Positions 18,793-40,904 of a stretch of 64,000 bases of DNA are shown one piece after another (position 1 is the stretch's first letter; every line of letters starts with the position of its first letter). Location: the NCBI GenBank assembly GCA_012845835.1, contig JABAKD010000002.1, forward strand, positions 26,006,210 through 26,070,209, given 5' to 3'. Source of the DNA: Undaria pinnatifida. Its lineage: Eukaryota > Sar > Phaeophyceae > Laminariales > Alariaceae. The translations under genes were made by a program, and so were the position numbers. The notes below the pieces were generated by a model. That model ran no database searches, was not told the DNA's origin, and saw only the letters and a program-made list of their open reading frames with translations.

Positions 18793-19120
18793 TCAGAAGA
18801 GAGGCAGGCGCGGCACGTCCCTCTCCCGCCTCTCCGAGGCCCTCTTCGCCCTTCTCATGTGCTGCGTCGCCTGCAAGTAGTTGAAGTACATCGCCGCCCC
18901 TCGGAGGAGCAGCCTGCGCGTCGAAACCAGGCAAGGTGCCCCGGTGCAAGGCGCGGGACAGCGAGAGGTGAGGGCAGTAGGCAGACCGGGGGCATGGAAA
19001 AGTAAAATGGACGCCTCTTAGCCGAGTCTGAGGTTGTTCCGTGCTCCAGTACGAACCATCTATAACAGAAGAATAGTAGGAACGGCTTACCGCAAGTCGT
19101 GAAATCAAAACTGGCGCGCA

Positions 19121-19151
<31 letters not shown>

Positions 19152-22100
19152 CGAAGGGAGGCGGAGGGGTCCACACAGCTGGAGTCTGCGTGCCAAAAAA
19201 ACAAAAACACAGACGGCCTTTGGTCCGTTTTCTTAGTGGCACCGATCGATGGTAACAGTTTGGGACGAATGGATGCTTTGCTCACCCTTTCCACCACGGC
19301 ATCTTCTTCTGCGCCTCCGCAGCAGCTTGCTCGGCCGGGTCTGGTGGTAGCATCCACGTCCCCTCCGATAGGCGGTCCTGCTCCCGGCTCTGAGACAATA
19401 GCGCGCGCGGTCGTATTTGTTGGTCATAACATGCGCTACGCACTAGACCCGTGCTACGATGGTGTAGTGGATAGCGGAAGCACTCTTAGGCCAAACTACT
19501 CCAGCCTGATCGGGCTCCCAAAGTCAGCAACTACCTAATATTGTTCGAATGCCATCAATGTTCTTACAATGCCACTACCTAGGGCATGGGATTGTGCCCC
19601 GGGACGCACGATTGTGTTTTTCTCACAGTCGGGTTTTCGGTCAGGCATGGAGCGCCTCAGAAACAGGCTAGGACCAAGGCGACGGTAGTGGCGGGTTACC
19701 CTCCTCTTCACTGCCAAGTTTGGGCCACTCGCCGTAGTGACTCTGTACCTCCGCGCCGGGAAAATAAAATCAGGCAATTGTGTCGGCGCAGCATAGCTAA
19801 CGCTTCCATGGCGGTTTCGTTTGGCAAACCAAAAAGCACACAGAAAAGCTCAAGACCGAAAAGTAGCAGAGGGACATCAAATCGCTTCGTTAGAGCGCCG
19901 TCTTTGGAGGCGGCTCCAACGCCCCTCGCCCTGCCTTGTCCGTCCCCCACCTGGCCGTGATCGGGTACGGGGGCTGAGCGAGACGAGCGAGAAGTTGCCC
20001 AAATTTTGTATTTTGAGGAGGTACTCTCGAGCCTTTGGTTGGATCTTGACGTCTGCAGAGCTTAGAGCGAATAAATCACGAGAAAACATTTCCAAATTGG
20101 CAAAATTTCCAAATTGGCATATAGGTTTCTTCAACCCGAGCCACTGACGTAAGAGGCCCCACAAGTGCACCCCCTACTGTATCCTTGGCCCTAGTGAGTG
20201 CTCCTAATGCTACACAACTAACACATTTGTGTGTAAACGAGTTTTCATTTTTTAATAAAAGCCAGAAAATACACCTACGCTGTGAAATCAAGGATCTCGA
20301 AACCCACATTTGCAAGCTGCGTGTGATACTTCGATCGCGCGCGAATCGAGCTCTTCGTCGAAACTCGTGTCTGCAAGCTTGCGAGCGATGCTTCGATCGC
20401 GCGTGCTACGGGCTGTGAGTGCGAGCATATCCTCGTGACGGGCATAAGCCGGGTGTTCGTGGGTTTGAGTCTACTGACGAATAAGGCGACAAGCTATCGT
20501 CGCGAGGAAACGCACAAAAAAATTAGCCCCCGTCTAAGTAAATCTCCCTACGCCATGTCAACTCCTTCCGCTGGTATATACTTCTTTCACCTTTTGGCTA
20601 GGTGTTCCTGACCAAAACAAAATACGACGGCCTTCAGTCCTCAACGGGATACTGCTACCACATCGACGGGGACGAAAGCTAACATTTTTTTCCTTCCACC
20701 GCAAAAATACGACTCTTATGTCCAACTTGCTTGTCCCCCAAAAACGTGGGCAGAGTTTCTACGCGGGTTAAAGCCAAGATCTAGAGCTGTGAGTCGGCAG
20801 GATCTCACGACTAACAAGTAAGGTGCCGTTAACTAACTGAGTTTCTTTAGTCGGCAAGTCGGTTGGCGAAAACCAGATCATGGCCAGCCGACTTGCGGAC
20901 TCAAGTCAGGCGAGCAAAGCGGGCCACATCAACCACCGCCCGCCCAGGGAACCTCGACCAAAACAAGGGAACATGTATCCCGCGTTTGTCACGTCCTACA
21001 ATAAAGGTAGCACTTTTTTTCCTTTTTTTTGTTTCTGAATGATAAGTGCTCCTTAACCCAAAATCGTCGGATTTTTTTCAGTTTTTTTTTTTTAGTTTTT
21101 TTTTTTTTAGTTTTTTTTTGGGGGGGGGGGGTACCTAAGTCATGGGATTGTCCGTCCATCGGGTTGCACCTTTAGTTTTTCTCCAAAATCAGTTTTTGGT
21201 TGGGGGAATAAATATCCTGAAACTAGGAGCCTCAGCGAAAAAAGGACACATCTCTACCGCAACATGAGTCATTTAACATTTATTCTTACAAGTATGGAAA
21301 TCCAATAAGTTGGATAGTCGGCACCTCCAGGACCAACTATTAACCCGACTAATAACTAGTTGGCAACTCAAGTCGTGCAGACTCACAGGTCTACGAAATA
21401 TCATTATTTTTTCGTCAAAACCGGGAAGCTCTACAGCAAAACGCTCGTTGTACACGGAAAAGTACAAAATGGCGCAGCAAACGCAAGAACAGCACAACAC
21501 CGGGTATCACCGCTCAAAGAGGCAACCCGATCGCGACAACTCGACCAACATGCAAGCACATAAGTGGGCATCATCGCCCAAAGGGCGAACGTATCATGAC
21601 GACGCAAACATATCAGGGAGGGGAGGTCAAGGGGGGGAGGTCTTCGGCCGGCCTTCACCTCCATATCCTCGTTGAGCTTGACCAGTTCCGCCTCCCAGTG
21701 CAGGCGCAACACGTCCGCCACCCCCGCCATGTCGGGAACCGCAAGCTGCAGGGATCGGCGACGGTAGGCACAGCGGCATACAGGAGCGTCAGTCGTTTAC
21801 AAGAGTATCCAGCAACCCACGGCAGCACCAGAGGGGTGCCCTCCTCGCACACCTTCCCTCGGGGTGACACGACACAGCCGCGGCCGCAAGACGGCGTCAA
21901 ATTATCCTGTGCAATGCGGGCGGTCAAATCAGCAGCACGCTCCTGATGGGCGAGCTGCAGCGTGGCTACCGGACAATACCATCTACGTATTTACCACTGG
22001 AAACCTGCTTTTTTTTGCAGATTACATGGGCTTATTGTAGGCAATGTTTTTTCGGGTTCCAAGAGGGGTTGAGTGAGGAGATGGAGCACAAGAAACAAAT

Positions 22101-25100
22101 AGCTGCACACCCACCGCAGCATTCCTCAACGTTTCCTACGTTGCCACAGACGTCCATGTCCACCATGTTGGCGGTGTGGTGGTGGCAGATAGGGCAGAGG
22201 AGCTAACACACCGACCGCGCTTACAGCTCGCGCCATCCATCACAATCTACAATTCCAGAGGGCCTTCCTACCCCTCCCCCTCCAAACCTCGCCCTCTCCT
22301 CGAGTCTTGAGTCTTTTGCTACTAGGCCTGCACTTATTTGAAATCTCAATCCGGACGGAAACATATAAGGACCGCTTGGATATTCACATTCACACTCCAA
22401 CGGTCCTCACGTTTCCGTTCAGAGTGACAACTCTTTGTTTCGATGGTTTTTAGTTGCGGGCAATGCCACGATGGAGGGTGGGGGTACTGCCAGGCTCAGA
22501 CAGTTACGACTGCCGGGGACCCTCCTCATCTGAGGCAACCTCCCATACATCCTCTGGAATCTCATTTTTGGTAGCTGAGGAACTTTACCACAAGATCTGG
22601 CGCGTGCTACGACGCTACGACCGAGATAGCACTTTTCGGCAAAAACGATTTTCGAAGGAATGACGGGGCTCCTTGACCCAAAATCGTTGGAGTCTGACAT
22701 TCTTGCTTTGCAATACGTATGACGTTTTTGTACACCTAGGCCATGAGTTTGGTCCTCGGGTTGCACTTGTCAGTTTTACTTGAAATAACTTTTTTCTCGG
22801 AAGACATTTTTTTTTTTTTTTTGTAAGACACATCTACTTTCCAGCTTCTGGACAAGCCATGGTCACAGGTGTCATCCCTTCTTCCCCCCGGTTCTTGCCT
22901 TTATCGCGCATAGGGTTCAGCAATCCCACTACTCGTCGATTTTCATCGAGTGACGCTAACTCACGCTCTCGCCCTTTCCTCAAGTCAATTTGTGCACAAG
23001 AAAAAGTCCCCACGAATTTATACGAGTATGCATTCGGGGGAATTCGAACTCACGAAATTGACCTATACCAGGCTCGAGGATAACCTGATACGCAACCGGG
23101 GCGACCGGCATAGACCTCCTCAAGTAAGTAAGGAGCCTTGAAAAAAAAAATGCAAAAATTCTGCAGTAAGCATGTGCCATCGCTGGAATCTCCTTCGTGT
23201 TTTTCCAACAGTCTTACAAGCGAAACTCAAGTCAAGTCTCCGAATTTTGACGATGCCAAAAAAAAAAAGGACCCCTTTCGAGTTTTCTGAAAGAGTCCGC
23301 AGACCGGCAATACACACAACTTGATCACTGTCACAAAACATCCTGCTGCGCGAGTTCCTAGCGAGCGCGAAGTCGTTCTGCGGTAGCTCCTCAATTTTTT
23401 CTTCCACGAAATCGGCCGGTTTTGAAACCATTTCCCGGCTGTATCTTCCGAAACACGTTGTCCCTTGCCACCCCGATGTCACCTTTTTGATAGTCCTTTG
23501 CAAACAAGAAAAATATATTACGACAGCATCCTTCCTCGTGTCGAGGAGCGAGCCATGAAATATTCGTTAAACAAAATCGCTCGTTTTTGGGGGGGGGCTG
23601 TAGTATAATCAATCCGCGATACTACATTTCGAAGGCATCCCACGGTAAGGGTCGCACTTTTTGGGGCCAAGCGTTTCTGACCGATCTGACCGATTTGACC
23701 GATCTGACCGATCTGACCGGTTGACCTCCTAAAGTGTGGACCTATCGGTTAGTACGACAATTGTACGAGTGTACGTGCTTCAGGACTACTAGCGCACGTA
23801 AATGCCCGTCCGGTTGTTAGCGCGAACGCATGCCTTCGAAAGTCATGTTTCGGGTGAAGTATATCGAGCTCCTCATTTTCGGAGTTCAGAAATTTCTTGG
23901 AATATGCTGCACCCCTACCTAGCGCGGAATGACTCTTCGTCCGCTGTACTACAAGTCAACTGCTGTGGCGATTATCTTGCCTTGGTAGCATCGAGGAAGT
24001 TTTTTCTGACGCTCCTGGCCATCCGCTTCGAAGACTCTTCGAAGTCAGGCGCCCCCCCTAGAACGCACGAGAACGCCTCCTCGAACTCTTCCTGAAAGTG
24101 ACCCCTGGTATATTTTTAGTCGTTTTCGCGTGAACGCAGCAGGTGCCAACAAGTAAAACAGCAAATGTTAGATAAGGGAGGGGGGAGTTTTCTACAATTA
24201 TTTTCCTACCTTCGAAAGGATACGACATGGTGCGGCAGCAAAGATCGAGAGGGGAGCAGGGGAAAAGAGAAGAGAAAAAACGAACAAAATAGTGAGGAGA
24301 GGGCGGAGAACAAAAGCGACCAACAAATAAAACGAAAACACACATCAAAGCCTGCGGTAAACAAGCCTCTTGCGCCCCCCACACCCATGACCGAAGCGTC
24401 AAAACGTGGCCGTGAAGGGAGGGCAGGTAACACTGGGGCTGGCCAGGCCAGGCCTGGTCTGGCCGACCAAGGATGAAACCGACAAACAGGCACCCAGCGT
24501 GATGACGACGACGCTCTTCACCGTATTCAAGGCATACTAGAACCAATCGACTCGCGCGTCCGATTCGCTCAACCACCAAAGCGCACGCACGACCCTAGAG
24601 ACCCACCTAAGGTGGCGCACGTGCGCCCTAAACGCCGGCTCCAGCTCCCTCGCGACGGAAGCAATCAACCACTCGCGCTTCTCCTTGAGCGCCGCCGGCG
24701 AGGCATCGATCGGGGGCTGCGACGGAACGGCGAGCGCGGGGGGGGGGGGGGGGGGGGCAGACGAGAAAAACAACATCATCGAGGGGCGGCAATCTGCCAA
24801 ATAAAGCTTTCTAGGGTGTGTTGCCCCTTTCAGAACCGGGTCTACATTTTTAGTGAAAAGGGCTTTAAATTAGTACGAGGTCTTTTTTGCAGCTCTAAAA
24901 TGGCCAAGTAGGGTGCGTACCCGGCGGTACCCGAGAGCCAAACCCGGATACCCTGGTAGGTTGATTCGTACCCGGGTAGATACCCGGATACATCGAGAGT
25001 TTCATACCTTGCTAAACACGCCCTTGAAAGGTTTAGAGCTTTCTGTACGGCGACAAGCGGTCGAGCGGGTCGGAGCTGGGGCGGCACGTCCGGAGGAACG

Positions 25101-28100
25101 GTGGGGTCGGCCGGCGACTGCCAGAACGAAACCAACTACAACAGCGAAACCAACTAAAAATAAAGAGGTTTCCTTCCGACTCGGGGGACGTCGTTTTTTT
25201 TCACCTCCTCTCCTATTAGTAGACAGTGGGGGGGAGGGGGGGGAGGGGGGATCCCTTTACAAGAGACAACCGCCGACAACATCAGGGCACTGTGCCCGTC
25301 TTGACAGCCTCGGGAAACTATCCCCCCAGATCGCGATCGCCGCCAGACAAAAAGGCGCGCGCGCCCAAACGCCTTCGAACATGGCGGTGGGGGCATCAGC
25401 CAATCAATCGGCAACAATAACGACGACAACAAACGGCTCCTGCCATGCACCCCAACCTCCGCGCTTCTCCCATCCACAATCCCCTCCTAGATTCTGCCGC
25501 GCACTCCCCACCCCCATGGCTTCTGCAGTGCATCCCCCCCCCGACAGCCGGGCGGCAAGGATCAATAGAGCAGCAGACAGCAGTGCTCCGCCCTCACCTG
25601 CGATCTTGAAGCTTTTGCGTGGTACGACAGTAGAGCCCCGTCCACGATGCCTGGGACACCAACACATAGGACACCAGCACAGCGAAAGCGGGGACGGGGA
25701 TTGGAACGAACGACCACCGAAAAAGGGGGGAACGCAAGCCTTTTCATGATGCTTTCTCTTTGCCGTCCATCATAAAAAATAAGTTCTCAATTTTCCATTC
25801 AGGGGTACTCCGCAGGCGGTACGCGCGCAGGCAAGCGGATTTGCCTTTGCCCCTGGTAGTCGTTCTGCCGCACGGTTGTTTGAGCACACACACAAATTAC
25901 ACAACACACCACCACGTGCTGCCGTTGCTACGGCAGCCGGAGGGCGCGCCAGCTAGCGCTGTGTCGTGAATGCAAGAGAGATAAATGGACACAACTTATA
26001 TGAAAATACATGGAAGTACGGTGAGCTAAAGATGTGTTGTTACCCATCCGCCGGAGGAAAACAAAAACAAAAAACATCAACACAGCCACCCTCTCAGGTC
26101 CGACACTCCATCGGCACCTCCTTCCCTAGCATCAACACTCGACATCCGGATAATGAACACCTACGCCTTGACCTCTTCTACCCCCCTCTCCCTCGCCGCC
26201 TTCCTACCTCGTAGCTTGCAACCACAGAGCTCGTATTTCCATATTAATAGGGGGAACAATCTGCACGGACCTTGGATGAGCTGGACATCGATAGGTAGAA
26301 ACCAGAAATCACGGTACATGTGAAGAACACACCCACTCCGACACCTGGCTATGGAATCGCGGTTTAACGTGAAGAACACAACCACCCCTACACCTGGCTA
26401 CGTTAAAGGTACACCATTGTTTTCCCCGAGGCTCCTAACGTATTGAGGAGCCCTTTGCCTTCTGAGGCTCGAAACCTATTGAGAAGCCCCGTGCCTTCCG
26501 AGTAACCTTTTGAGCTCTCTTTTTTTCCGAGGCTCTTAACCTATTGGGGAGCTCTTTTGCCTTCTGAGGTTCTTAACGTATTGAGGAGCCCTTTGCCTTC
26601 TGAGGCTCCCAAGGTATTGAGGAGCTCTTTGCCTTCTGAGGCAAAACCTTGTTTTGTAAGTAAAACTGAAAGCGCAATCCGATTACCAAACCCATGAACA
26701 AGGTACAAGAACAGTTTTCGAAACGAGAATGACACTCCGACGATGTTGGGTTGACACTTTCACTACTTATCACTATATAAATACGTATCCCATACTATTT
26801 CCAAGTAGGCTGTCTGCAAAAAGGCAGGGGCAGTTCAAAAGGGGTTAAAGAGCCCCGTCATTCGGAAAGTATGCTTGCCCAAAAGTGCTACCGCTGTCGT
26901 AGATAGCATGCGTCCCCTTACCCATAAAACGCCTCTGCCACCCTGGTTCCCACCCTTTCTCCACACAACCCACAACCAGCCCGTCGGCAACGCCAAGATT
27001 GTCACGCCGCAGGCGCTATATCCACTCACCCTTCGCGTCTGATCCGAACTGCAGCAGCGGCATCGCCCCCGATGTTGCCTCCTCGACGTCTGCCAGCAGC
27101 CGGGCGCACTTCGGCCGGACCTCCAACAGGCACGACTCGGCGAGCGCCGCGGCCGCAACGGTTCCCTCTTGCTCACTGCGGCGAGGAGCCTACCCAGCAA
27201 ATAAAAACAGTGGAGCATGCAACAGCAGAAAAGGATAAAGTAAAACAACGACAATCCATATGCAATCAAAACATCAACAGCACAACGCGTAACAATCAAT
27301 GACAAGCATGATCGACATTAAAAAAACAGCATACCAGGAAGGCATCAACAATACCAACAACAATACCGCTAACAGCAACAACACCAACAACAACATCACC
27401 GCCAATACCACCACTAACATTAACACCAAAACCACCACCAACGCCAACACCAATACCGACACCAGTAACACCAACACCATTACCGCCACTACTGCCACCA
27501 TCACCGCCGCCAACACCACCAACGCTATCACCAACATCAACATCAACACCAAACACCACCAACACCACCCCCATCGCTTTTCACCGCGCGTCTTCCTCAC
27601 CTCGGAAAGACGTTCGTTAGTGCTCGCCGACGACCAGATCCCTTCCAGCCGTTGCCGCAGCATTGACAGAGGCACCGCCGCCTGTCGCCCCTCTCCCCCG
27701 GCCCCAGCTTCGACGCGCTGCCCGTCCCTCGCCACCCCTTCCCGCCGCTGAGATTTCGAGAAAACGAAGCCTTCCGTGAAGAACAAGAACATCGCCCGGG
27801 CGAAGCAGGGAGTTACAAATAGAGGTGATCGGGGACGGGGGGGCTACCGGAGACGGGGGTGAGGATAAAGCGAAATACCGCGGAACAAGTCCCCCGTAAC
27901 AGGGAGTTACAAATAGAGGCGACGGAGGCGGTCGGAGACGGGGAACGGGAGGGTGGCGTGAAAAGACTGCGGACCAAGTCTACGATTCTAACTACTGATG
28001 TTGTGACACTTGAAGCAGTAGACCATTAATAGTTCTGCGCGAGCGGTGTCGAGACAAAAAAACTGTCGCGGAAGGAGCGACCACAAGGAGGAGAATGAGC

Positions 28101-31100
28101 CGATCGGTCTGCCCAAACAAGTAACACCACCCACGCGCGCGTCCTCGGCGTGCTCTGTTCGGAGATCGACGAAGCAACAGCAGCAGCAGGGGCGCCCCCG
28201 GATTTGGCCAGGCCCGGCTAGGTAGGGTGGGGTGGGGTGGGGTGGGGATTGGTCTTGCGGGAAAAAAGAGCGCCCGCGATTCGGCCACGCCCGGCTCGGC
28301 GGGCTGGGGGGGGATGGGGGGGGGGGGCGTTGATGTCGCAGGAGAGAAGAGGGGAAAAAAACAAAAACAAAAAACTAAAACAACAAGATGTCTTTCTTAT
28401 TGGCTGTCATGCTTCTTGAAAAAGCAAAGAAGCAGGGCTTGTCATAGGCCGATAGTCCGGGCCAACATTAAGACTATGATTGTCCGGGCCAGGCCGGGCC
28501 TACACTTTCGAAAAATTGATGGGCCGGCCCGGGCCGGCCCGGGCCGTGAGAATGAAACGCGATGGGCCGGGCCGGGCCGGGCCGCGGCCCAGCATCCAAG
28601 ATTTTGACGGAGCGGGCCGGGCCGCGGCCCATAATCTAAAAAATTGATAGGCCGGGCCGGGCCGCCGCCCATCATCTCGAAATCTGATGGACCGGGCCGG
28701 TCCGCGGTCAATAAGGTGTGGGCATTTACATGGTTCGCCCCCCCCACCCCATGACGCGGCCCACGTGTTTTCACGAGTGGCCCGGGCCACGGCCCATGAA
28801 ATGTGGTGTGCTGCTGCTACTATTAATTTTAAGAAAGCAATACAGCGTCCACCCTGCCCACGAGGCGGCCCACGTGTTTTCACGGGCCGGCGCGGGCCGC
28901 GGTCCACGAGATGTGCAGAATGGGACACACCCAGCAGTAACATGGTAATGAACCAACACGCAGCCCGAGTGCGATCTGTGTCGAGGATAGGGGTTTTAGA
29001 CTACCACCTATCGAGGCAATGTTCAGTAGCATTGATTGGTTCATTGCTGTACTCGTAGTCGTGGCAGAGCTAGAAATAAACATACGAGTTGAACCGGAAC
29101 TTTCTCAGGGGATGTGTTCAAGAAAATCGGCGGGACTACCACCTGTTCGACTACTGCTATGTATTGTTCGAGAAGATCGTATCGTACCAGGTGGTCCAGT
29201 TTTCGGGGTCAGAGGCTTCTGGAAGGAGTAGTGCTCTGGACGTTGAGACGGACGACGTGGGTGGCCCCACCCTCATCACTCTTCTCTCATCCTTCTATCC
29301 TGCCTCGTCAATTTTCAGAATCCCTTAACCTATGGACACAACAGTCTATTGTTGCCAAGTTTTTTTTTCTTGGCCGAAAGCACCCTTTAAAACATCAATA
29401 TCTCTCTGCCTCGTGCATCTTGAACGCTCCTCCGGTGAGCTCAATTGCTGCCAGCGCCGGCCTCTGCGACCACGCCTGATCGTATCATCACAAATGCCAA
29501 TAGGTTAAGAGCCATCGTCTACAGCGCGGCGCGCATATCAGGAGTCTTCGAGGAGACGTCTTCGACGGCAAGCAGTAATCTGTCGCATTGCAGCAACGGG
29601 ACTACCATCAATCACGGGACTGTCAACTTTGGAGTTTGAAAAAGTGAGTCGAGTCAGGATTTTCGACAGTGGCTTGGATTTAGATTGATAATCTAGATTC
29701 AAGATACTAAACACTGGTGGCCGAGTCCGTCTCGGTCGTGTACTGCTGTCAAAAAGGATAGCATCGTATCTACGCGCCGACATCGATATCGGGGCATCGC
29801 ATTTTTCGTTTGCTTTTCTTGCACGGGTTGAGAATAGTGCGGCGTAATTTTTAGTACTTCTTGAGGCATCGCAGATTGCATTGCGTCCGCTTGAGCCTGC
29901 ACTAGCTGCAGCATCGACCGCATAGTTAGTGCACGTCAGTCATTCCAACACGGGTCGTGAAAGGACTCGAGACGTTCAGTTGAGCCTGCACAAGCTGCCG
30001 CATCGACGGCACAGGAAGTGCACGCCAGTCTTTCAAACACGGGTCGTGAAATGACTCGAGACGTTCAGTTGCGCCTGCCCCAGCTGTAGCATCGACGGCA
30101 CACGCAGAGTGCGGCAGTCATTGGAACACGGGTCGAGAACGGACTCGAGGCGTTCAGTTGAGCCTGCACCAGCCGCAGCATCGACGGCACAGGTAGTGCA
30201 CGCCACAGGACCGCGCTGCACCAGCTGCAGCAACGACAGCACAGGTAGTGCACGTCAGAGGACCGCGCTTCATCAGCTGTAGCATAGACCGCACAGATAG
30301 TGTACGTCAGTACAAGAGGGCACAGGCCGAGCTTCGCAAACTCTGGTCGTGTTTTTCTAGAAGCCTGCATGAGGATTGCAGCAAGACATTTACAAACCCT
30401 TTGCTACTGAGCGGGAGGATCCATCATCATGGACGGCACAACAAACAACTTTCACGTTGTCTTGAAACAAATATAAATAATTCGATGGCAAAAAGGCTGA
30501 CGACTTTCTTGAATGGAGCTCCAAGCTTCGTGCCAGTCTCAGCATCTACAACAGAGCCATCTTCAACATACAAGGGCAAGAGCGACCGTCGGAGACCGAT
30601 GACAGTCAGGCCACGGCCCGTGCGGCGTGGGGTGCCGCCAACCAGGGGCTATTCAGCATACTGTTATTTTCGACGGGCGGCTCAGCCTTCCTCGTCGTAC
30701 GGCGATTCGTGAGCATGACACTCGAGGACGAAGCAGGACATGGACAGCAAGCGTGCGCTGCTCGAGAAGTTAAAAGGGAGTTCGCGCGAAGCGATTCACG
30801 CAGAGCGTTCCAGAACGAACGACACTTGAATGCGATCACAACAGGACCCGGACGAGTACCTTTACATCATGGATACCTGCCGTGACCGCCTTAACGCGTG
30901 CGACCCACCAGAGGGTCCAACAGATCGTCAGTATGAGGATATTTTACTGCAAGCTCTACCGCCCGAATACAAGGCCATTCGCCAAGTCCACCTAGAGAGA
31001 GGGGACTTCGGGCTTGCCGATATCCGGCGTATGATGGCGGCCATTTACGCGGATAACCCGGCCCGCTCACGTTCTGATTCATTCAGGGGTATCGCGGGAC

Positions 31101-34100
31101 ATGGTGCCGCCATACAGGCAATGACCCGCGATCGCAACATCACGTGCCACTTTTGTGGTCGTATTGGCCACTTCGTTGCCCTTGTGCAAATGTCTGATAA
31201 AAACCTTGGTGCCGTTGTGAGCGGACAAAGGACAATCTTTGGCGTCTCCGTGACCCAGGCAGCACATTTTTTTATGCTTCTGCCGTGGTTTGGTCCGGGA
31301 CGGAACCGCCGGTGAAACCTTCGTGGCAGGAGGCATCTTCCGACCGAGCGGTGCAGCGACGGTCACCTTCGTGCGTGTCGTTGTAGAACCGGGAGCAAGG
31401 ACTGCTGCTGTAGCATGGGAAGCCCTCGCCAAAAGATCAGTGGCGTTGTATTTGCTCTCTTCGGATGACAGATAGATATCAAGCAGGTAGGGTATTGCAG
31501 CAGCAGATGTTGTTGCAGTAGCAGGTAGGTGCTTGGTACTGCTGCTGTTGTTGGTACTGCCAGCAGGAGGAGGAAGTGGTCCACCAATCGAGATAGAAGC
31601 CATCGGACCCGGCCGTTAGTGGAGCATTGTGCGGATACGAGTGGGTATGTATGCCTCGTGGGTCGGATGCAGCTGGCCCACGGAACCCAGAAGGAAAAAT
31701 AAAACGAAAAACAAACACCGTAAAAATATTGAAAATACGCGTCAGCACACACGTTTGTGTACGGGCAGCACACGGGGCCGGCCCGTCAAATCCACGGGCC
31801 GGCCAGCAAAAATAGAGCCCGGGTCTCATGGGTCTCGCTGCCAATACCATGGGCCGGGCCGGACCGGGCCAAGACATTAAATTTGGTGGGCCGGGCCGGG
31901 CTGGGCCGTGAAATGTTGAAAAGAGATGGGTCGGGCCGGGCCGTGGCCCATCCGATCAAAAATGGATGGGCCGGGCCGGGCCGGGCCGGGCCGCGGCCCA
32001 CCAAATGAAAGTTTGATGTGCCGGGCTGGGCCGCGGCCCATTTTACGAACAATTGGTGAGCCGGGCCGGCCTACCAGCGCCGGCCCATGACAAGCCCTAC
32101 AAATAACCCAAGAGGGAAAGGCAAAGAGAGACCTTTCTGGTTGTTGCTCACCGTTGTGGTCAGGGTCGAGGAATTTTCGGCTGAGGCCCGCCGCCTTGGC
32201 CGCGAACTCGCGTCGTTGGTAGTTAGGATGCGGGAGCCCCACAGTCCTGAGGTCAAATATCTCGGACAAGCCAGCATCGCGCAAGCTGCGCGGGAGCGGC
32301 AAGTAGGGAGACGGGACCTGAGAGGCTTCTAGCAAGCGCTTCGATGCGACTAGTAATGTAAAAACAGAACTAAGTCAAGGGATACAAATATTAGCCTGAA
32401 TCTCCTCCACCCTTGGCGTTAGAAGAACAAATTACTAGAACCAAGCAAACATTTACTCGTTACTCGAACTCTTGAGTAAATAAGAGGTAACGAAGGCTTA
32501 CCGGGTGAGGGCGAGGGATCGGCAAAACGTCGAGCACGGGCTACGAGTACAAATAAATAACTTCGAGGCTCCCAAGAGAACAAAACGACAAAAAACGACG
32601 GAGGCGGACACAGTCACGCGCCTGTCTCGGGACATTGAACGGACGATTCTGAATAAGGCCTTGGCAGCGGCAACTCCCTTTCCCTCCTCTCTCTCTCCCC
32701 CCCCACAACGTCGGAGGTCCGGCTGTATCAGAAACACGGCTATGATTCTTTCTTGCCTGGGCGGTTTGTTCACGTCCCGCCACAGCGCTTCCATGTTCTC
32801 CCTCGCCGCGCTCTGCAGGGCCTCGAAATGCTCGTGTTCTTCCACGTCTCGGAGAACCACCATCAGCACCTATGTACGCAAAATATGTGGCAGGAAGGAT
32901 CGCAAAATGTACAGTACGGCCAGATGTTGCAGGATGGGCCGTGAAAGGTATGATCCGGTACGGCCAGGTCGTAGCGGGGAATTTAACGTACACCAGGTGC
33001 CTGAACACAGCTTTCGATCTGCGGCTACGCTTTGAAAACACGGGGTACGGTCAGGTCGGCTGGTAGGATACTGATGACTTTATACCAGGTGCCTTAGTAC
33101 AAGATTTTTGGCTTTGCGACCACGCGTTGCAAGCACAAGATATGCCGCTCCGTCCGGTGGCACGCGAAAGAGAACGCCATAAAAGCGTTACGCCAGCCTG
33201 GATGCTACGATCGAAGAGTGGCCGCGGCGAAGCAAAAAAGGCCTTTGCATCTGTCTTTGGCCAACCATGCCAATAACGTCACGAGTCGGACGTCTCTCGA
33301 TGCAGAAGGAAGCATGGGAAACAAAATATCGTCAAAGTTCAGGAGTCTTCAGCGACTGTATCAAGTTGGTTGTCCGACATCGCACTTCAGCCAAGCGGTG
33401 AAAACAATAGTTCCAACACAAACATCGGATGCCGTTCCACAACAGCGAAGAAGTGCGTCACGCCGCCGCCAAACAGGCAACGCAAGAAACAGCGAACACT
33501 CTTTCGCCCCTTCCCCCCAACCCACCCCGCGGCCGCGACCGCGGCCTTGACTACACGCACGCACGACACCAAGAAAGCACGCCCTCGGTCCCACCCTTTC
33601 CTTCCACAACCTACAAGCCGCCAAGCGCGAGAGCGCGAGCGGGACCCCAATCTCTCATCGATCTCGCCTTGGGAAATCGTTCGGCCCCGCCCACAGGCGC
33701 CCCCCCTCCTTCTTGCAAGACGCCTGTTCTGGTGGTGTCGCCGCCGTCCTGCCCCTGGTACAGCCGCACCGCCTCCTCGAAAACGGATCGTAAGACGGAG
33801 TAGGCTTGACCGTCAGCTCGTCCCACGTCGTGCGCCCACATATTGAGCATGATGACGTCGGCAGCCATCACGGCAAATAGGGTGGTTCTACGGAAGGAGG
33901 GGAGCGAAGGAGGAAAAGCGGACGCCAAACACGCCGGGGGCCGGAATAAAGCTCGTTATCCCTTTTAGCACTGCACTCCCGATATGGGGACAAAACACAT
34001 GGAACTATACTAGGTAGGCTTGGGAGTTGGGAAAGGGGTGAAAGGCGAGCAGCGAGCAAAGGCGGCGACCGAGGTGCAGAATGATCCGCGGAACGGTCCG

Positions 34101-36891
34101 CGTGACACCAAGCGAACACACAACCAAATCCTTCCGTTCAGGAGGACTCCTCGGGATGTCTGTTCTCGGGGGTCACAAACCAAGAAGAGAAAAATATGCG
34201 GAACACGCTACTCGTACGCCGAGAGCGCTCCTATCTGCGGTCTGTGGTCTGCGGCTCACCGGCGTACGAGGCCTGGCATGCCTCACTCACCAGCTCTGGC
34301 CAGATACGGCGACTACGGCGAGAGACCCGACCCCCCGCCCCCGAAAGGGGGGCCCGAAAGGAGCCCCCTACCAGGCCTTCCGACACAAGACTGCACCAGG
34401 TGACACCGTTAGCACCATCACGGTAGGAGCCTTCGTCAGGAGTTTCCGATAGAACGCTGCCCCACGTGACAACACCGACAGAGTTCCGCGATGAATATTA
34501 TACTTCTATTATCCGTCCACGCACCTGCTGTCGAACTCCATCCCTTCGGCACCGCCACGACCTCGGCTTTGCGTGCCCTCCACATCGACCAGCACGAACG
34601 TTGTCGAGGTCACCGCCTCTACCTCCGCCGCCTCCGCCGGCGCCGAAGCTGCCGCGGAAGCTACGGCCGCGCCCTTTGCATCGCCCTCTTTCGGCACATC
34701 GTCGCCGCCGTTGCGACCGGGAATCACCGCCCGCGTTGAGTCATCCCCCCTGTCCTCCTCGCGCGCAGACGGATTTGTGATAGCTCCGGACTTTCTTTTT
34801 GTGCGAGTTTTTTTCGTTGAGGATCGCGTCGCCGCTAGGCGCCTACTATTGCCGCTGCTGCCGCTGCTGGCCCTGGTGGCACTGCGACTGTTTCTGCTGC
34901 TGCTGCTGCTGCCATCGTTGCTGCTGTTGCCTTGAGGGTTCCCCGTCATCGACGGTTTTCTCTTTCTTCGTCGCGGGAGGGAGCACAGCTGGAGGTCCAC
35001 CCACGCTCCGATGGTTGTTCTTCGAGGCAAGCTGTCTTCCGCCTGTTCCAGCACGGGGAATCTGCCATACGACACGATTATCATGGCGTTTTCGGCGCGA
35101 GGTTTCGTTACGTATGTGCGCCGAAATGCTGCCGTGGTATCCTCCATTTCGACGAAAACAGCGGCCATCTGGATAGGAAGTGTAAGCTTCCTATGCGGTC
35201 CTACTTCGAGCTTCAGATCCATATTTTCTCGAAAAATGAAAGTACTCGCTTGTGCAGTCTAAATGTGCAAAAATTGGACCGGAAAAAACTGATTCGATAA
35301 TCCAATGGCCCAAGTCGTCAGATTTTGCCCCAAAATCGAAGCCCAAAATCCGACGACTTGGGTCATCTGATGTTCAAATAAAAAGATGGCATGGTATCTA
35401 AATTCACGATGTTATCCACACAGCACGCAGCAGCAGAACGGTATCGATGAGTTGGATAAGGACACAGCGACGTTGCCCCACGCTTGACGCGTAGTCGGCG
35501 GTTGGCGCGTCTCTTTGCGGCCAGACTAGAGTCGGCTGGCGCGGGCTCGGGCGTGAGACCGAGAGAAGCACACTCGGCGTTAGCCTCTCCGTGGACACGT
35601 CCGCGTATCATAGACTAAACCAGGGCCGCAGCTGTAATCACGTGTTGTGGCTCGGATGTTTTATACCTTGTAGTAAAAAAAGAAAAACTAAGACAGGTTG
35701 GGCGCACTCGACACGTCGCTTCGCGCTGCACTTGAGGCAGTCAGCGTGGGCTCGGACGCTTGGGTCCCACGCCCAGTGCAGCACATTCGGCGCGTCTCTT
35801 CGCGGCGCCAAACCACAACAAATGGTTGGCTTCGGCTCCAATCTCTGGGCGCACGCTCTCACTCAACTTCAAACATATCCGAATTCTTCGCGCAACAAGA
35901 CCCTTCTGGTTTCCTACACTGCTGAAAATCTGATTTAGTCCAAATCTGAAGCTCAAAATCTGGACCGCTCCTGTACCGGTACGTAGGAAGCAGCCTTGCG
36001 CTCACGAATTATACAAAAAATGCGTCTACATGTGTCGCATGTCGCGCCTGCTATTATTATCGTCCTTGTTGTCCTCCGGAATGGTACTCGTACGTACGTA
36101 CTCATATTTGCACAATCGATTTCATAGCTCTGTTGGGGCGACAGAGCAGCAGCAGCGGCGGCGGCGGCGGCGGTTGGGGATTAATCCAAAGAATTGGGCT
36201 GCGAGCGAGACACGACGCGACCCCCCCTTCTTGTGCCCTGGGTTACCGGTATGCAGGAGACGGCTGCTTATTAATATTAATATTAATAGTAGACCTACGA
36301 GTCCTGCAAGCAAAAGGCGCTGATCATCATCCCTCATAAGAAAGGTGGGGATCGCTGGCCACCGTTATGCCAATACAAGCCAGTAACCAACCCTTCCTGC
36401 TTCACGATCGACCGGGTATACACTTAGACCAGGTATACACATGGTGATCTCTGGTGTACCTGGTGCTTACAAGCTCACCCTGTGCCGAACAAAGCATTCA
36501 ACAGCGTGCTCTTCCCACTGCACTGGCAGCCAGTCACGGCCACGACTCGATAGTCGCGCGATCCTGCCAGCTGCTCCGGCAGCGTATCGAAGTCCACGCA
36601 AAACGTCAAGAAGTCGTCCGCTTCCGTGGAAGGAGAAGTAATACTCTCGCCGCCACTGCCGCTGTTGCCGCTGCTGCCTGCCGCAAGAGTTGGAGCATCG
36701 CGACTAGTTCTAGGAAGGACGTGTCTAGGAACCGACAACTTTGGTGCTGCTGCTGCTGTGTCGATGCTGCTCCCGGGAGGTGTAGCGCCCCTGCTACCGA
36801 GCGCCAGAGCCACCAGCAACAGTGATACCCGCAGCACTATTGCTGCATTGCTAAAGCTACACCGTGTGCGTAACCGGTGGCGAGACACCAT
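18793..36891 (-). CDS. Sey1/RHD3-like dynamin-family GTPase with signal-like N-terminus, 14 exons
   Basis: Exons (5' to 3'): 36891-36479, 35061-34525, 33887-33722, 32869-32757, 32285-32152, 27770-27601, 27189-27030, 25650-25598, 24716-24607, 24104-23981, 21954-21853, 21745-21659, 19389-19286, 18913-18793; 2394 nt, 797 residues plus TGA, all phases agreeing. The family hydrolyses GTP to tether and fuse ER membranes. Visible: G1 GCQCSGKSTLLN (Lys127), G2 RRTTIGAW (153-158), G3 DVEGT (297-301), NMWAHDVGR, G4 LRD (378-380), KPPSLRDAGLSEIFDL, LPHPNY, then a helical part with YFNYLQA near the end. Unusual: a signal-like segment (residues ~14-36, VLRVSLLLVALALG), about 120 low-complexity Ser/Arg/Ala-rich residues between G2 and G3, Cys for Ser in G1 (QCSGK, usually QSSGK), and no C-terminal hydrophobic hairpin. 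Introns 4 and 10 use GC donors (AG|GCAAGA). The intron 3 donor (GGC|GTCTTG) is weak and least certain. The real ATG is at 36891-36889. Confidence 0.82.
19124..19151 (+). repeat. Poly-G run (28 nt) in last GTPase intron
   Basis: Uninterrupted G on the plus strand, C on the transcribed-sense strand, between exons 13 and 14. Runs of this length are prone to sequencing error. Confidence 0.8.
20995..21268 (+). mobile_element. MITE family copy in GTPase intron 12
   Basis: Left end 'aaaggtagcacttttttt', middle 'ccttaacccaaaatcgtcgg' and 'catgggattgtccgtccatc', right end 'aggagcctcagcgaaaaaa' then 'acatctctaccgcaacatg'. It also holds long T and G runs (21084-21131). Confidence 0.6.
22035..22203 (-). 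CDS. Cysteine-rich ORF of unknown function
   Basis: Read on the minus strand after a possible acceptor ('gtgtgttag|CTCC'), a 56-codon frame contains LCPICHHHTANMVDMDVCGN and ECCGGCAAICFLC and ends at TAA (22034-22032). The spacing C-x2-C and later paired Cys suggest metal binding, but no named zinc-finger class fits. It lies inside intron 10 of the GTPase gene on the same strand. It could be an alternative exon, a nested relic, or chance. Confidence 0.25.
22595..22821 (+). mobile_element. MITE family copy, right end lost
   Basis: Left end 'gcgtgctacgacgctacgac' then 'gatagcacttttcggc', middle 'acggggctccttgacccaaa' and 'cacctaggccatgagtttgg'. The right half is replaced by the T-rich tail of the SINE at 22822, so the SINE probably inserted into or beside it. 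Confidence 0.6.
22822..23110 (-). mobile_element. tRNA-derived SINE, copy 2
   Basis: Minus-strand copy with B-box segment GAGTTCGAATTCC near 23039-23052 and an A tail (T run at 22808-22823 on the plus strand). Close to copies 1 and 3 over its whole length. It lies in intron 10 of the GTPase gene in sense orientation. Confidence 0.75.
23680..23725 (+). repeat. 9-bp tandem repeat (CTGACCGAT)n
   Basis: About five units of 'ctgaccgat' or 'ttgaccgat' in GTPase intron 10, followed by a diverged MITE-like tail near 23850-23930. Confidence 0.75.
24738..24757 (+). repeat. Poly-G run forming poly-C tract before GTPase exon 9
   Basis: Twenty G on the plus strand. On the gene strand this is C20 ending about 20 nt before the acceptor GTCGCAG|CCC of exon 9, so it most likely acts as the polypyrimidine tract. 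Confidence 0.7.
26428..26645 (+). repeat. 36-bp minisatellite
   Basis: Five to six units of the pattern 'gaggctcctaacgtattgag' plus 'gagccctttgccttct' in GTPase intron 7. The unit contains the short inverted pair GGCTCC/GGAGCC, so each unit could fold. The word 'gaggctcc' also occurs in the MITE family, from which the array may have grown. Confidence 0.8.
27336..27565 (+). repeat. (AAC/ACC)n microsatellite in GTPase intron 6
   Basis: Impure AAC and ACC triplets fill most of the 411-bp intron between exons 6 and 7. The Asn/Thr-rich and Val/Gly-rich frames over it are repeat artefacts. Confidence 0.85.
28450..28925 (+). repeat. GGCCGGGCC palindromic minisatellite, locus 1
   Basis: Roughly 50-bp units, each made of a GC block (gggccgggccgcggccc) and an A/T-rich spacer such as 'atcatctcgaaatctgatgg' that is itself partly palindromic. 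It lies in GTPase intron 5 and is related to the array at 31745-32095 in the same intron. Confidence 0.75.
29891..30310 (+). repeat. 89-bp minisatellite
   Basis: Units start at 29891, 29980, 30069 and 30158, each beginning like 'ttgagcctgcacaagctgcc' and containing 'cgggtcgtgaaaggactcga'. Two shorter units of about 53 bp follow. The constant 89-bp step shows a true tandem array, in GTPase intron 5. Confidence 0.85.
30575..31190 (+). pseudogene. Copia-type gag fragment, frameshifted
   Basis: The clearest part is the frame from about 30830, with DPDEYLYIMDTCRDRLNAC, YEDILLQALPPEYKAIRQ, RGDFGLADIRRMMAAIYADN and a zinc-knuckle start CHFCGRIGHF. The final Cys of the CCHC knuckle is missing. The preceding part (around 30620-30790) carries gag-like text in another frame, so at least one frameshift is present. 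No protease, integrase or reverse transcriptase was found. The fragment lies antisense in intron 5 of the GTPase gene, next to the minisatellites. Confidence 0.65.
31745..32095 (+). repeat. GGCCGGGCC palindromic minisatellite, locus 2
   Basis: Same unit type as 28450-28925: 'gggccgggccgggccg' blocks with A/T-rich spacers of 25-35 bp. It ends about 55 bp from GTPase exon 5 on the downstream (intron) side. Confidence 0.75.
34525..35061 (-). CDS. GTPase exon 2: switch I, low-complexity insert, DxEG switch II
   Basis: This 537-nt exon begins FPVLEQAEDSLPRRTTIGAW, directly continuing the FGTG end of exon 1 across a phase-2 junction. It ends TTFVLVDVEGTQSRGRGGAE before the donor AGCAG|GTGCGT. Between them lie about 120 residues rich in Ser, Arg, Lys and later Ala and Glu, where RHD3 relatives have only about 20. 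The frame stays open through the insert, so it is probably translated, though a retained or alternative intron cannot be excluded. Confidence 0.75.
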
Positions 36892-38489: not shown

Positions 38490-40529
38490 TCATCGCTTCG
38501 TCCATACAAACGTTCCTCGTACCGGCCCGTACGGAACATGCCATGTGAGGAACGACGAGAAATGTTTCAGCGATACCTTCACCGAGCACAAGACAGCCTT
38601 TTGGAACCGGTCGAGATCGTCGGCGTCTCTACAGCGCATTGATCTCGGAAACATGTCCTCGACGGAGGCAGCGCCGCGGACAATCTCCAGCCGGTTCACG
38701 ACGGGGTAGTGTTGCAGGAAGACCTGCAGGTCCCACCTAGCGGAGGGCTTGTCGTGGCTTCTAGTCTTAGCCCAGGCCTGGATATCTTCCTGAGCGCTCA
38801 GTTTATCTGTCGACCCGACGGTCTTACTACCCCCCGACGACGTCGACGGCTTCACCTTGTCCTTCGGAAGCTTGTCATCCTTGTCCGCGTACAGATAAAT
38901 TACCTCCGTTCCGTACGTGGACGCCACTAGCTGAATGGACCTGCTGACCTCTTCCCACCCAATGGCCAGTTCCTCATTCGCCGCGGTGATGTAAATAGGA
39001 GCAAACCCTAGATACGCCAACACCTCCACGCCCATGGCGACTCCCGATGCGCGCGGCAACACCCGGAAATTATCCGACGATCGCTCCGCCGTGTCCGCCC
39101 CCACCACCGCTCCCATCCCAGCGGCACTATAGTCCTCTCTTTCGCTCGCGACCCCCCCCGACCCCGCCACAAACCAGTGCGCGTTTACTCGCTGCCGCAG
39201 GTGTCTCCAGTACTCCACGCCGTCAACGCCACCTCTCAGGACATAAAACGCCGCAAAAACACTCCGGGCAAACTTGTTAGCGTTTTCAACATCCCCGACA
39301 GCGCCTGGGCCCCTGCCCCTGGCACTTGCGCCGCCGCCTCCACCACCGCCGCCACCGGAGGCGCACAGTACAGGATCGACGCACATGTACATAGAAGGAG
39401 CCCAAGTAGTGTACCGCTCCGAGACGCGAAAAAAGTCGTCCATCACGAGCGTGTTCATCTCCTGCAGGAGGTACAGGGGAATTCGGTCTAACGCCGCGCT
39501 CGCACCCACAACCGCCGCCGGCTTCCCGCGGAAAACCCCCCCCATGCGGGCCCACCACCGCCCCGTCTCATCCAATTCCGGCGGGCCATTGATTGGCCAC
39601 TCGCGCTTGAGCAACGACAGCGTCACCAACTGGTGTTTCTCGCGGGAGCCGAGGGGGTGCGTGTGCGTAGGGTACGAGGAGCCCTCGTACACGATGAGGC
39701 AATCCAGCGCGTGCTGCGTGTTTTTGACCACGATGGAAGACGGGGAAAGGGCGCCACGGTCGCTGTAGTCGCACCACATGGACGCCAGCCGCAGGGCGTC
39801 CGTGCGGAAGGACGCTACAACGCTAGTCCCGTTGCTTGCCAGGAACTCTGCCTCTCTGGACAGCACCTGCCGGTCGTCGAGGTACAGGGCATCCGCGCGA
39901 AAGGCGGACACCCAGACCCCGACCATTGCGTCCTCGCTCGCGTACGTCGTGAAGTCGTTCTTGGCGATCTCTTCGGCGAGGCGGCGCGACAAGCCGTACA
40001 TGCCCCCCTCCATGTGCTCCGGCCAGTAAACCCCTCGGTAGTCGAACTCGAAGAGCGCGTCGGTGTTCACCGGCTCGTTCGATTCGAAGTAGGCCGGGTT
40101 CGGGACCCTGTCCAGCGCGTGCCGCTTACCGAAGTACAGCATCTCGTCTGGCCCCACCTCCCGCAGCCAGCCCTTCGTCCCGACCAGGCGCGACAGGAAC
40201 AGCGTGCTGTCGTCGTTGGTCTTGATGAGGACGTCGAAATCGTGGTGTTGCGTGACCCAGTGAATGCAGTGCTTCGTCTTGTCCGAGACGGTGTCCATCG
40301 CCTCCTCTGACGGGGCGATCAAAATGTCCCCGTGCGTCTTGACCTCCTTCGCCAGGAGGGCATTCTCCTCCCGCGTAAAACTCCGGTCCTCGCCTACCAC
40401 GAAGATGTGGGAAACACGCGCGCCCTCCGTGTCGTCTTGGAGCCAGGTCTGCCGCAAGAGGTGGCGCCTCTTCCACCCGCTCCTTCGCGACAAAATGCAT
40501 ATTGCTACTTCTTGTACATGGACCGGCGG
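38490..40529 (-). CDS. Family 31 glycosyltransferase (beta-1,3-galactosyltransferase-like), large terminal exon
   Basis: The exon starts after 'tggctcctctcag' at 40529 in phase 0; upstream exon(s) with the start codon and any membrane anchor were not found. The N-terminal half matches GT31: RRSGWKRRHLLRQTW, HGDILIAPSEEAMDT, then KTNDDS (about residues 103-108 of the exon), in the place of the family's metal-binding DDD motif, and later GGMYGLSRRLAEEIAKN and SEDAMVGVW. Such enzymes transfer galactose or N-acetylhexosamine in the Golgi. The C-terminal half is extra. It begins near GKPAAVVGASAALDRIPLYL and runs through MYMCVDPVLC, a Rossmann-like pattern reminiscent of DUF115 or sialyltransferase-like proteins, and includes a Gly run. 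The last ~25 residues before the stop at 38490 look less protein-like, so the exon may end earlier at a splice donor. Confidence 0.75.
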   Translation of the reverse strand, partial: PPVHVQEVAICILSRRSGWKRRHLLRQTWLQDDTEGARVSHIFVVGEDRSFTREENALLAKEVKTHGDILIAPSEEAMDTVSDKTKHCIHWVTQHHDFDVLIKTNDDSTLFLSRLVGTKGWLREVGPDEMLYFGKRHALDRVPNPAYFESNEPVNTDALFEFDYRGVYWPEHMEGGMYGLSRRLAEEIAKNDFTTYASEDAMVGVWVSAFRADALYLDDRQVLSREAEFLASNGTSVVASFRTDALRLASMWCDYSDRGALSPSSIVVKNTQHALDCLIVYEGSSYPTHTHPLGSREKHQLVTLSLLKREWPINGPPELDETGRWWARMGGVFRGKPAAVVGASAALDRIPLYLLQEMNTLVMDDFFRVSERYTTWAPSMYMCVDPVLCASGGGGGGGGGASARGRGPGAVGDVENANKFARSVFAAFYVLRGGVDGVEYWRHLRQRVNAHWFVAGSGGVASEREDYSAAGMGAVVGADTAERSSDNFRVLPRASGVAMGVEVLAYLGFAPIYITAANEELAIGWEEVSRSIQLVASTYGTEVIYLYADKDDKLPKDKVKPSTSSGGSKTVGSTDKLSAQEDIQAWAKTRSHDKPSARWDLQVFLQHYPVVNRLEIVRGAASVEDMFPRSMRCRDADDLDRFQKAVLCSVKVSLKHFSSFLTWHVPYGPVRGTFVWTKR

Positions 40530-40904
40530 CTGAGAGGAGCCAAGCGAGTCCAGAGACACGGCGACAATCGGTTGTGGGCCAAGAACGTCGGGGGAGGGGG
40601 GGGGGGGGTGCAGTCAAGGATATGGGCCAGCATGGGATGTCTGCGTTGGTTACACCATTGACAACGCATCCTACGGTATCACAGGGGTGCACCCAATCTT
40701 TACTAGGGTCCTCACTTAACCCTGATGGGTCTTAAGAGGCAAAAACTGACGACAAAAACTGACGGTTGCAGCATCCTTTACACGAAGCAACCCGGGCTGC
40801 CAGACTAGGTAACAACGATTTTCCTATCGAACTCCAACCCAAGTACCCGTAAGACACGCATGCAGCTTGCACTGCCGTGTGCCGCACGCTCGCACCATGA
40901 TAAG

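What the first reader, a model, noticed from the sequence alone, without database searches (positions are those of the whole stretch)
18793..36891. Sey1/RHD3-like GTPase with signal-like N-terminus and no visible C-terminal hairpin
Fourteen exons rebuild a 797-residue protein with G1, G2, DxEG and RD motifs and the RHD3-type middle part. Known family members are cytosolic-facing GTPases with no N-terminal signal and a C-terminal double membrane pass. Here a signal-like hydrophobic segment precedes the GTPase, and the last three exons are charged with no hairpin-length hydrophobic run. The topology would be inverted: lumenal, secreted or plastid-directed. This may be an undescribed branch of dynamin-like membrane GTPases.
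Basis: partly seen in the sequence, partly recalled or inferred. Interest (0 to 1): 0.8.

Follow-up and report, generated by a model that had tools for sequence, protein, structure and literature searches.

The report
Hairpin-less Sey1-type GTPase, brown alga
A brown alga carries a relative of the GTPase that fuses endoplasmic reticulum membranes in yeast and plants, but this one seems to have lost its membrane anchor at the tail and may instead begin with a signal for entry into the secretory route or the compartment around the plastid.

Summary
The gene is real. It lies on the minus strand, 36891 to 18793; I rebuild 13 exons and 772 residues. Pfam gives RHD3_GTPase at 1.6e-38 and Sey1_3HB just over its cut-off, over profile positions 4-105 of 419. 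G1, G2, DxEG and RD motifs are intact. It is the only copy found in a 511-Mb genome, which a large EsV-1-7 set marks as a brown alga (marker recalled). The same genome holds an atlastin-type gene. A published survey reports both proteins in Ectocarpus (PMC9804665, passages), so the gene itself is not a new branch.

The missing C-terminal hairpin holds up in the window: the last exons are non-hydrophobic, and roughly 200 residues of the Sey1 bundle also lack a counterpart. The signal-like N-terminus is plausible but unproven. Its frame is open against chance, yet its codon usage looks non-coding, and a good acceptor at 36677 could bypass it. No relative was found in viral or prokaryotic collections; no transcripts were available. 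My reading is a retargeted Sey1-type GTPase, probably luminal. The periplastid compartment is the boldest location not excluded.

The parts
36479..36891 (-). exon 1: start ATG, signal-like segment, leader, start of GTPase domain with G1
   Evidence: 5' half not coding-like by codon score
36796..36849 (-). hydrophobic signal-like segment, residues 15-32 (NAAIVLRVSLLLVALALG)
   Evidence: translation not proven
36619..36795 (-). Ser/Ala/Gly/Pro-rich leader, residues 33-91, no F, W or Y; candidate transit-peptide-like region
   Evidence: function inferred
36505..36531 (-). G1 P-loop GCQCSGKST
34525..35061 (-). exon 2: G2 (35021-35007), 119-residue basic/Ser-rich insert (34985-34629), G3 DVEG (34586-34575)
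33695..33887 (-). exon 3: WAHDVGR segment; 3' splice end uncertain
32757..32869 (-). exon 4: G4 VVLRD; GC donor
32152..32285 (-). exon 5: end of GTPase domain (SEIFDLRTVGLPHP)
27601..27770 (-). exon 6: LEGIW segment; 5' splice end uncertain
27030..27189 (-). exon 7: start of helical bundle
25598..25650 (-). exon 8: 18 residues, good splice sites, codon score about zero, inside the Sey1_3HB match
24607..24716 (-). exon 9: helical bundle, inside the Sey1_3HB match
23981..24104 (-). exon 10: helical bundle, inside the Sey1_3HB match; weak acceptor, GC donor
21659..21745 (-). exon 11: charged helix, coding-like; Sey1_3HB match ends in its first residues
19286..19389 (-). exon 12: ends ...AEAQKKMPWWK
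18793..18913 (-). exon 13 with stop: LLLRGAAMYFNYLQATQHMRRAKRASERRERDVPRLPLF, no hairpin
36677..36677 (-). competing acceptor that would splice out the signal-like segment
   Evidence: score 2.5, reached by 19 of 1306 AGs

Best explanation
This is the single Sey1/RHD3-related dynamin-like GTPase found in a brown alga that also has an atlastin-type gene. Shown by sequence: an intact RHD3-type GTPase domain and the first part of a Sey1 helical bundle; in the best gene model there is no distal bundle and no C-terminal hairpin. Inferred: with atlastin available for ER fusion, the Sey1-type protein was freed from that job. It lost its tail anchor and gained an N-terminal signal peptide or signal anchor, so it works inside the secretory route, in the ER lumen or the plastid-surrounding (periplastid) compartment. 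There it would dimerise across GTP binding and hydrolysis, as Sey1 and atlastin do, to tether or remodel membranes through its N-terminal segment or a partner.
For: Family: Pfam RHD3_GTPase 1.6e-38, Sey1_3HB 8.4e-6; yeast Sey1 9.4e-22. Single copy found (1 match of 4 candidates; 6 matches of 7 candidates, each inside this gene). Atlastin-type gene on contig 29: GBP domain 8.1e-34 on unspliced segments strung together and two hydrophobic stretches further 3'. Both proteins reported in Ectocarpus, atlastins in stramenopiles (PMC9804665, passages). No hairpin: hydropathy of the 772-residue model; coding scan 38480 to 9000; last exon scores +15.6 against -20.5 and -5.2 in its other frames and was not in the training set. 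N-terminus: open 107 codons p = 0.006, signal-like hydrophobicity in 9 of 235 open ATG frames; 1 poor start exon for the rival acceptor. A luminal-type HSP70 start of the same genome (L025) has the same layout of hydrophobic start plus Thr/Pro/Ser linker.
Against: The 5' part of exon 1 (71 codons) scores -24.1, like non-coding windows (37% of 436 null windows score at least as much; the lowest of 121 training-gene windows is -1.6). The exon-chaining script spliced this segment out even with the start fixed at 36891, and a free start gained about 10 bits more. Of two HSP70 starts used as controls, L024 scores +12 and L025 about 0. The acceptor at 36677 is among the best in the gene. The ATG has a T at -3 (sequence). 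No relative in two collection scans, whose single-protein queries reach close relatives only. Exons between 21659 and 19389 could still be missing. No transcript.
Confidence: 0.47

Rival explanations
1. Hairpin-less cytosolic Sey1-type GTPase: the tail is truly lost, but translation starts in an upstream exon spliced at 36677, so there is no signal peptide. It would act as a soluble GTPase in the cytosol, somewhat as GBPs do.
For: Non-coding-like codon usage of 36891-36678; acceptor score 2.5 at 36677; exon chaining spliced the segment out with either start rule, and the free start (a 6-residue exon at 37904-37886 joined to 36677) scored about 10 bits more.
Against: Open frame p = 0.006; only one start exon with a donor of 2 or more for this acceptor between 36740 and 38480, and it codes poorly.
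Confidence: 0.24
2. Ordinary Sey1/RHD3 with an incomplete gene model: a distal bundle and hairpin are encoded in exons not recognised here, and it fuses ER membranes like its relatives.
For: 317 of 419 Sey1_3HB positions lie outside the match; the intron between 21659 and 19389 is 2.3 kb; exon 12 ends in MPWWK, which by recall resembles the segment just before the hairpin in RHD3/Sey1.
Against: No believable hairpin exon among the hydrophobic stretches seen; the last exon is coding-like, in phase, and ends the frame. The genome search with Sey1_3HB found nothing, but its control was silent and this gene itself was missed, so it says little.
Confidence: 0.2
3. Mitochondrial intermembrane-space GTPase: the Arg-rich start plus hydrophobic stretch is a presequence with stop-transfer, an analogue of OPA1/Mgm1.
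For: Four Arg and one His in the first 10 residues before the hydrophobic run (sequence).
Against: Only 14 residues precede the hydrophobic run, short for a presequence (general knowledge); a signal peptide with possible cleavage after ALALG fits as well.
Confidence: 0.05
4. Decaying gene copy.
For: Long introns, repeats and gag-like sequence in intron 5 (gag-like by eye only), 119-residue low-complexity insert, weak splice sites at exons 3 and 10.
Against: Four G motifs intact and 13 exons joining into one open frame over 18 kb; only copy found in the genome.
Confidence: 0.04

Closest known systems
Sey1p / RHD3 (ER fusion GTPases of fungi and plants)
   Same: GTPase domain over Pfam cut-off with its motifs; first quarter of the Sey1 helical bundle
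   Different: 119-residue insert between G2 and G3; distal bundle and C-terminal hairpin not found; possible N-terminal signal
Atlastin (the other ER fusion GTPase, the usual one of stramenopiles by PMC9804665)
   Same: Dynamin-like GTPase plus helical bundle; the bundle in our model is shorter than the Sey1 type
   Different: Sequence matches RHD3/Sey1, GBP not listed; the genome has its own atlastin-type gene
Ectocarpus siliculosus Sey1p ortholog listed in PMC9804665
   Same: Probably the orthologue: a Sey1p beside an atlastin in a brown alga (passages read)
   Different: Its sequence and topology could not be seen here
Diatom periplastid dynamin sDrp (Moog et al. 2011, as cited in PMC5756292, passage read)
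   Same: Precedent for a dynamin-family GTPase in the periplastid compartment
OPA1 / Mgm1 (recalled, no call)
   Same: Dynamin-like GTPase with an N-terminal targeting plus hydrophobic segment
   Different: Different GTPase subfamily; mitochondrial

Membership tests
Sey1/RHD3 | RHD3-type GTPase domain with G1-G4 | tested here: met
   132.9 bits vs cut-off 42.4; motifs present
Sey1/RHD3 | Sey1 helical bundle (PF20428) | tested here: inconclusive
   25.3 bits vs cut-off 24, profile 4-105 of 419 only; the last 103 residues searched alone match no family at E 10
Sey1/RHD3 | Two closely spaced C-terminal transmembrane segments | tested here: not met
   Hydropathy of the 772-residue model and frame scan downstream; so filed as a Sey1-related variant, not as a canonical Sey1. 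Rests on the gene model, no transcript
Sey1/RHD3 | Cytosolic N-terminal GTPase without signal peptide | tested here: inconclusive
   Signal-like segment present; translation disputed by codon score and exon chaining
Sey1/RHD3 | GTP-dependent fusion of ER membranes | not testable with these tools
   needs assay
Atlastin | GBP-type GTPase domain (PF02263) | tested here: not met
   Not among matches of the window protein at E 0.01 or of its joined GTPase exons at E 1
Periplastid-targeted proteins | Signal peptide, then transit-peptide-like leader without aromatic residue (or leucine) at +1 | tested here: inconclusive
   Residues 32-91: S12 A9 G8 P7 T6, no F/W/Y; simple -3/-1 rule allows 6 cleavage sites, e.g. 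after ALALG with S at +1, but also two with L at +1; no SignalP/HECTAR/ASAFind run

The most novel reading that the evidence does not exclude
The gene descends from the Sey1 of the red algal endosymbiont. It was kept after the host relied on atlastin, and is retargeted by a bipartite leader into the periplastid compartment. There it tethers or fuses the membranes of the vesicle network or reticulum around the plastid: a relic ER fusogen working in the endosymbiont's former cytosol without its old hairpin.
Probability: 0.15. Interest if true: 0.85.

Novelty: new variant of a known kind. Interest (0 to 1): 0.5.

Why it matters
The survey passage I saw (PMC9804665) describes atlastin and Sey1p as having a cytosolic GTPase domain and holding on by two closely spaced membrane segments near the C-terminus. 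A relative without the hairpin, possibly on the other side of the membrane, would show that this GTPase module can be re-aimed. In a brown alga it would also offer a candidate for the proteins that must maintain the vesicle network of the periplastid compartment.

Tried and rejected
Automatic exon chaining was rejected as a final model: without anchors it chose tiny spurious exons; with anchors it split or bypassed exon 1 and kept a repeat as coding. I then fixed splice sites by hand from listed donors, acceptors and phases; keeping exon 1 whole is my choice against that script.

Hydrophobic stretches considered and rejected as the hairpin: a proline-rich candidate exon in the last intron, 19185-19091 (score -13.5; three-frame view); 27569-27376 next to exon 6, a CAACAC-type tandem repeat behind a strong donor at 27601; 36328-36245, in intron 1 and absent from the coding list. 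Coding-scored but hydrophobic stretches: 27008-26937 and 25701-25630 lie before the bundle match and are single spans, the latter overlapping exon 8 in another frame; 13175-13020 is a Met-rich simple repeat; 9144-9016 is broken by a proline run and lies 9.6 kb beyond the stop. None was tested further.

The Sey1_3HB genome search gave no match, but its control was silent and it missed this gene too, so it is not counted. Viral and prokaryotic collections gave no relative. Searches listed no paper on a periplastid Sey1 or atlastin; I saw listings with opening lines of abstracts (4 to 20 papers shown per search) and passages of four papers, in a limited library. A red algal origin could not be tested: no red algal sequence was at hand.

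On re-check I corrected: the count of Arg in the first 10 residues (four, not five); the score; the result, first told too mildly, for which I lowered the best explanation from 0.50 to 0.47 and raised the cytosolic rival from 0.22 to 0.24 (the mitochondrial rival went from 0.06 to 0.05 with the Arg count).
Full report
WHAT WAS CHECKED. The finding names a minus-strand gene at 18793-36891. I translated both strands and found the GTPase exons. First joined exons already gave RHD3_GTPase at 1e-18 and yeast Sey1 PDB 5ca8 at 2.2e-13.

GENE MODEL. I trained a simple codon-context model on 3033 codons: HSP70 and GBP exon matches from 24 loci of the same genome, the neighbouring galactosyltransferase frame, and seven pieces of this gene. 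Positive scores on those seven pieces are therefore partly circular. The exons at 27747, 24716, 21745, 19389 and 18912 were not used for training and score +9.9, +11.8, +15.8, +6.6 and +15.6; the exon around 24094 scores +14.6. The 53-base exon 8 scores -0.3 in an earlier version of the model and rests on good splice sites and on lying inside the Sey1_3HB match. The final model has 13 exons and 772 residues. Weak points: donor of exon 3, acceptors of exons 6 and 10, GC donors after exons 4 and 10.

FAMILY. The 772-residue model gives RHD3_GTPase 1.6e-38 (132.9 bits, cut-off 42.4) and Sey1_3HB 8.4e-6 (25.3 bits, cut-off 24) over profile positions 4-105 of 419. A version without the insert and uncertain ends gives 3.6e-41 and 4.4e-6 and yeast Sey1 at 9.4e-22. 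G1-G4 are intact. A basic, Ser-rich insert of 119 residues lies between G2 and G3; it is codon-neutral (-0.7) and could contain an unrecognised intron.

COPY NUMBER AND HOST. The genome search with the GTPase-region protein gave 6 matches at E up to 10, each an exon of this gene. The Pfam family gave 1 match, also here, under its cut-off because it is one exon. Both searches work exon by exon and score only the best candidates. The genome is 511 Mb; 150 scored matches out of 2176 candidates to EsV_1_7_cys mark a brown alga by recalled knowledge. A GBP/atlastin-type gene lies on contig 29 (5 GBP matches in the genome, three of them there). Its segments strung together give GBP 8.1e-34. Two hydrophobic stretches lie some kilobases further 3': EYWVVPMVIAFASYVLQMIAGLG, which scores as coding, and TLCVFAMVLTVYLLVDRLIAYLSG, which does not appear in the coding list; other hydrophobic stretches there look like simple repeats. 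I did not splice this gene, so its hairpin is a likely reading, not a result. PMC9804665 (passages read) states that eukaryotes have either atlastin or Sey1p except Ectocarpus siliculosus with both, and that stramenopiles have atlastins. So this gene is most likely the brown algal Sey1p.

C-TERMINUS. The only stretch of membrane length with mean hydropathy above 1.5 in the model is at the N-terminus. The minus-strand frames hold many hydrophobic stretches; those that also score as coding are simple repeats, proline-broken, or single spans before the bundle. Exon 13 is in phase, preceded by a CAG acceptor, coding-like in its own frame only, and ends in a stop. After the bundle match the model has 97 residues where the profile has 314 positions, so some 200 residues are missing besides the hairpin. 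The last 103 residues match no Pfam family at E 10. The tail is strongly basic and its hydrophobic part is not strongly amphipathic.

N-TERMINUS. For translation: the frame is open for 107 codons (31 of 5000 simulated sequences, p = 0.006), and only 9 of 235 ATG-started open frames in the window, this one not excluded, reach its hydrophobicity. Only one start exon with donor score 2 or more could join the rival acceptor 36677, and it codes poorly; other acceptors were not enumerated. Against: the 71 codons upstream of 36678 score -24.1, where 436 non-coding windows average -27.9 (sd 16.6) and the lowest of 121 training-gene windows is -1.6; the synonymous-only score is -19.9 against a coding mean of +21.6 and a null mean of -16.4. 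The surely coding rest of exon 1 also scores slightly negative (-5.1) on that last measure. The rival acceptor at 36677 scores 2.5, reached by 19 of 1306 AGs. The exon-chaining script removed the segment with either start rule. Two HSP70 starts serve as controls: L024 +12, L025 about 0. I put translation of the segment at about 0.6.

WHERE IT MIGHT WORK. In algae with red complex plastids, periplastid proteins carry a signal peptide and a transit-like leader without phenylalanine or similar at +1 (PMC12136025, passages; PMC5756292, passages). A positive net charge is needed to cross the plastid envelope but not the periplastid membrane (PMC3017844, passages incl. abstract). Residues 32-91 here have no F, W or Y and carry K1 R4 H1 against D2 E2. 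The simple rule allows six cleavage sites: some leave S, R, A or I at +1, two leave L. This fits a periplastid or plain luminal destination and does not decide between them. PMC12136025 says that specific proteins must maintain the internal vesicle network of this compartment (passage), and PMC5756292 cites a periplastid dynamin in diatoms (passage).

VERDICT. A real, probably functional Sey1/RHD3-related GTPase with a shortened bundle and no hairpin in the best model. The signal is somewhat more likely than not, but unproven. It is a new variant of a known kind rather than an undescribed branch.

Noticed in passing
38493-40613 (-): Long single open frame, 707 codons, with a Galactosyl_T domain (8.7e-20, residues 48-239); no other Pfam match at E 0.01. 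It lies just upstream on the same strand.
   Followed up: partly
30481-31312 (+): Gag-like frames with a CHFCGRIGH knuckle by eye inside intron 5; no Pfam match at E 0.01.
   Followed up: partly
29891-30310: 89- and 52-base tandem repeats in intron 5.
   Followed up: no
28511-28707 and 31928-32069: Two arrays of similar GGGCCGGGCC-rich 40-50-base units in intron 5, on either side of the gag-like stretch.
   Followed up: no
L025, upstream of the HSP70 match (minus strand): Second luminal-type HSP70 start: hydrophobic signal then Thr/Pro/Ser linker, perhaps the periplastid HSP70.
   Followed up: partly
L003 (C48:9.457 Mb) and L005 (C22:1.798 Mb): Two further GBP-family matches over cut-off.
   Followed up: no
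37776-37714 and 37423-37373 (-): Two near-identical peptides (MIASAKVFS-G) in the intergenic stretch, probably a DNA repeat.
   Followed up: no
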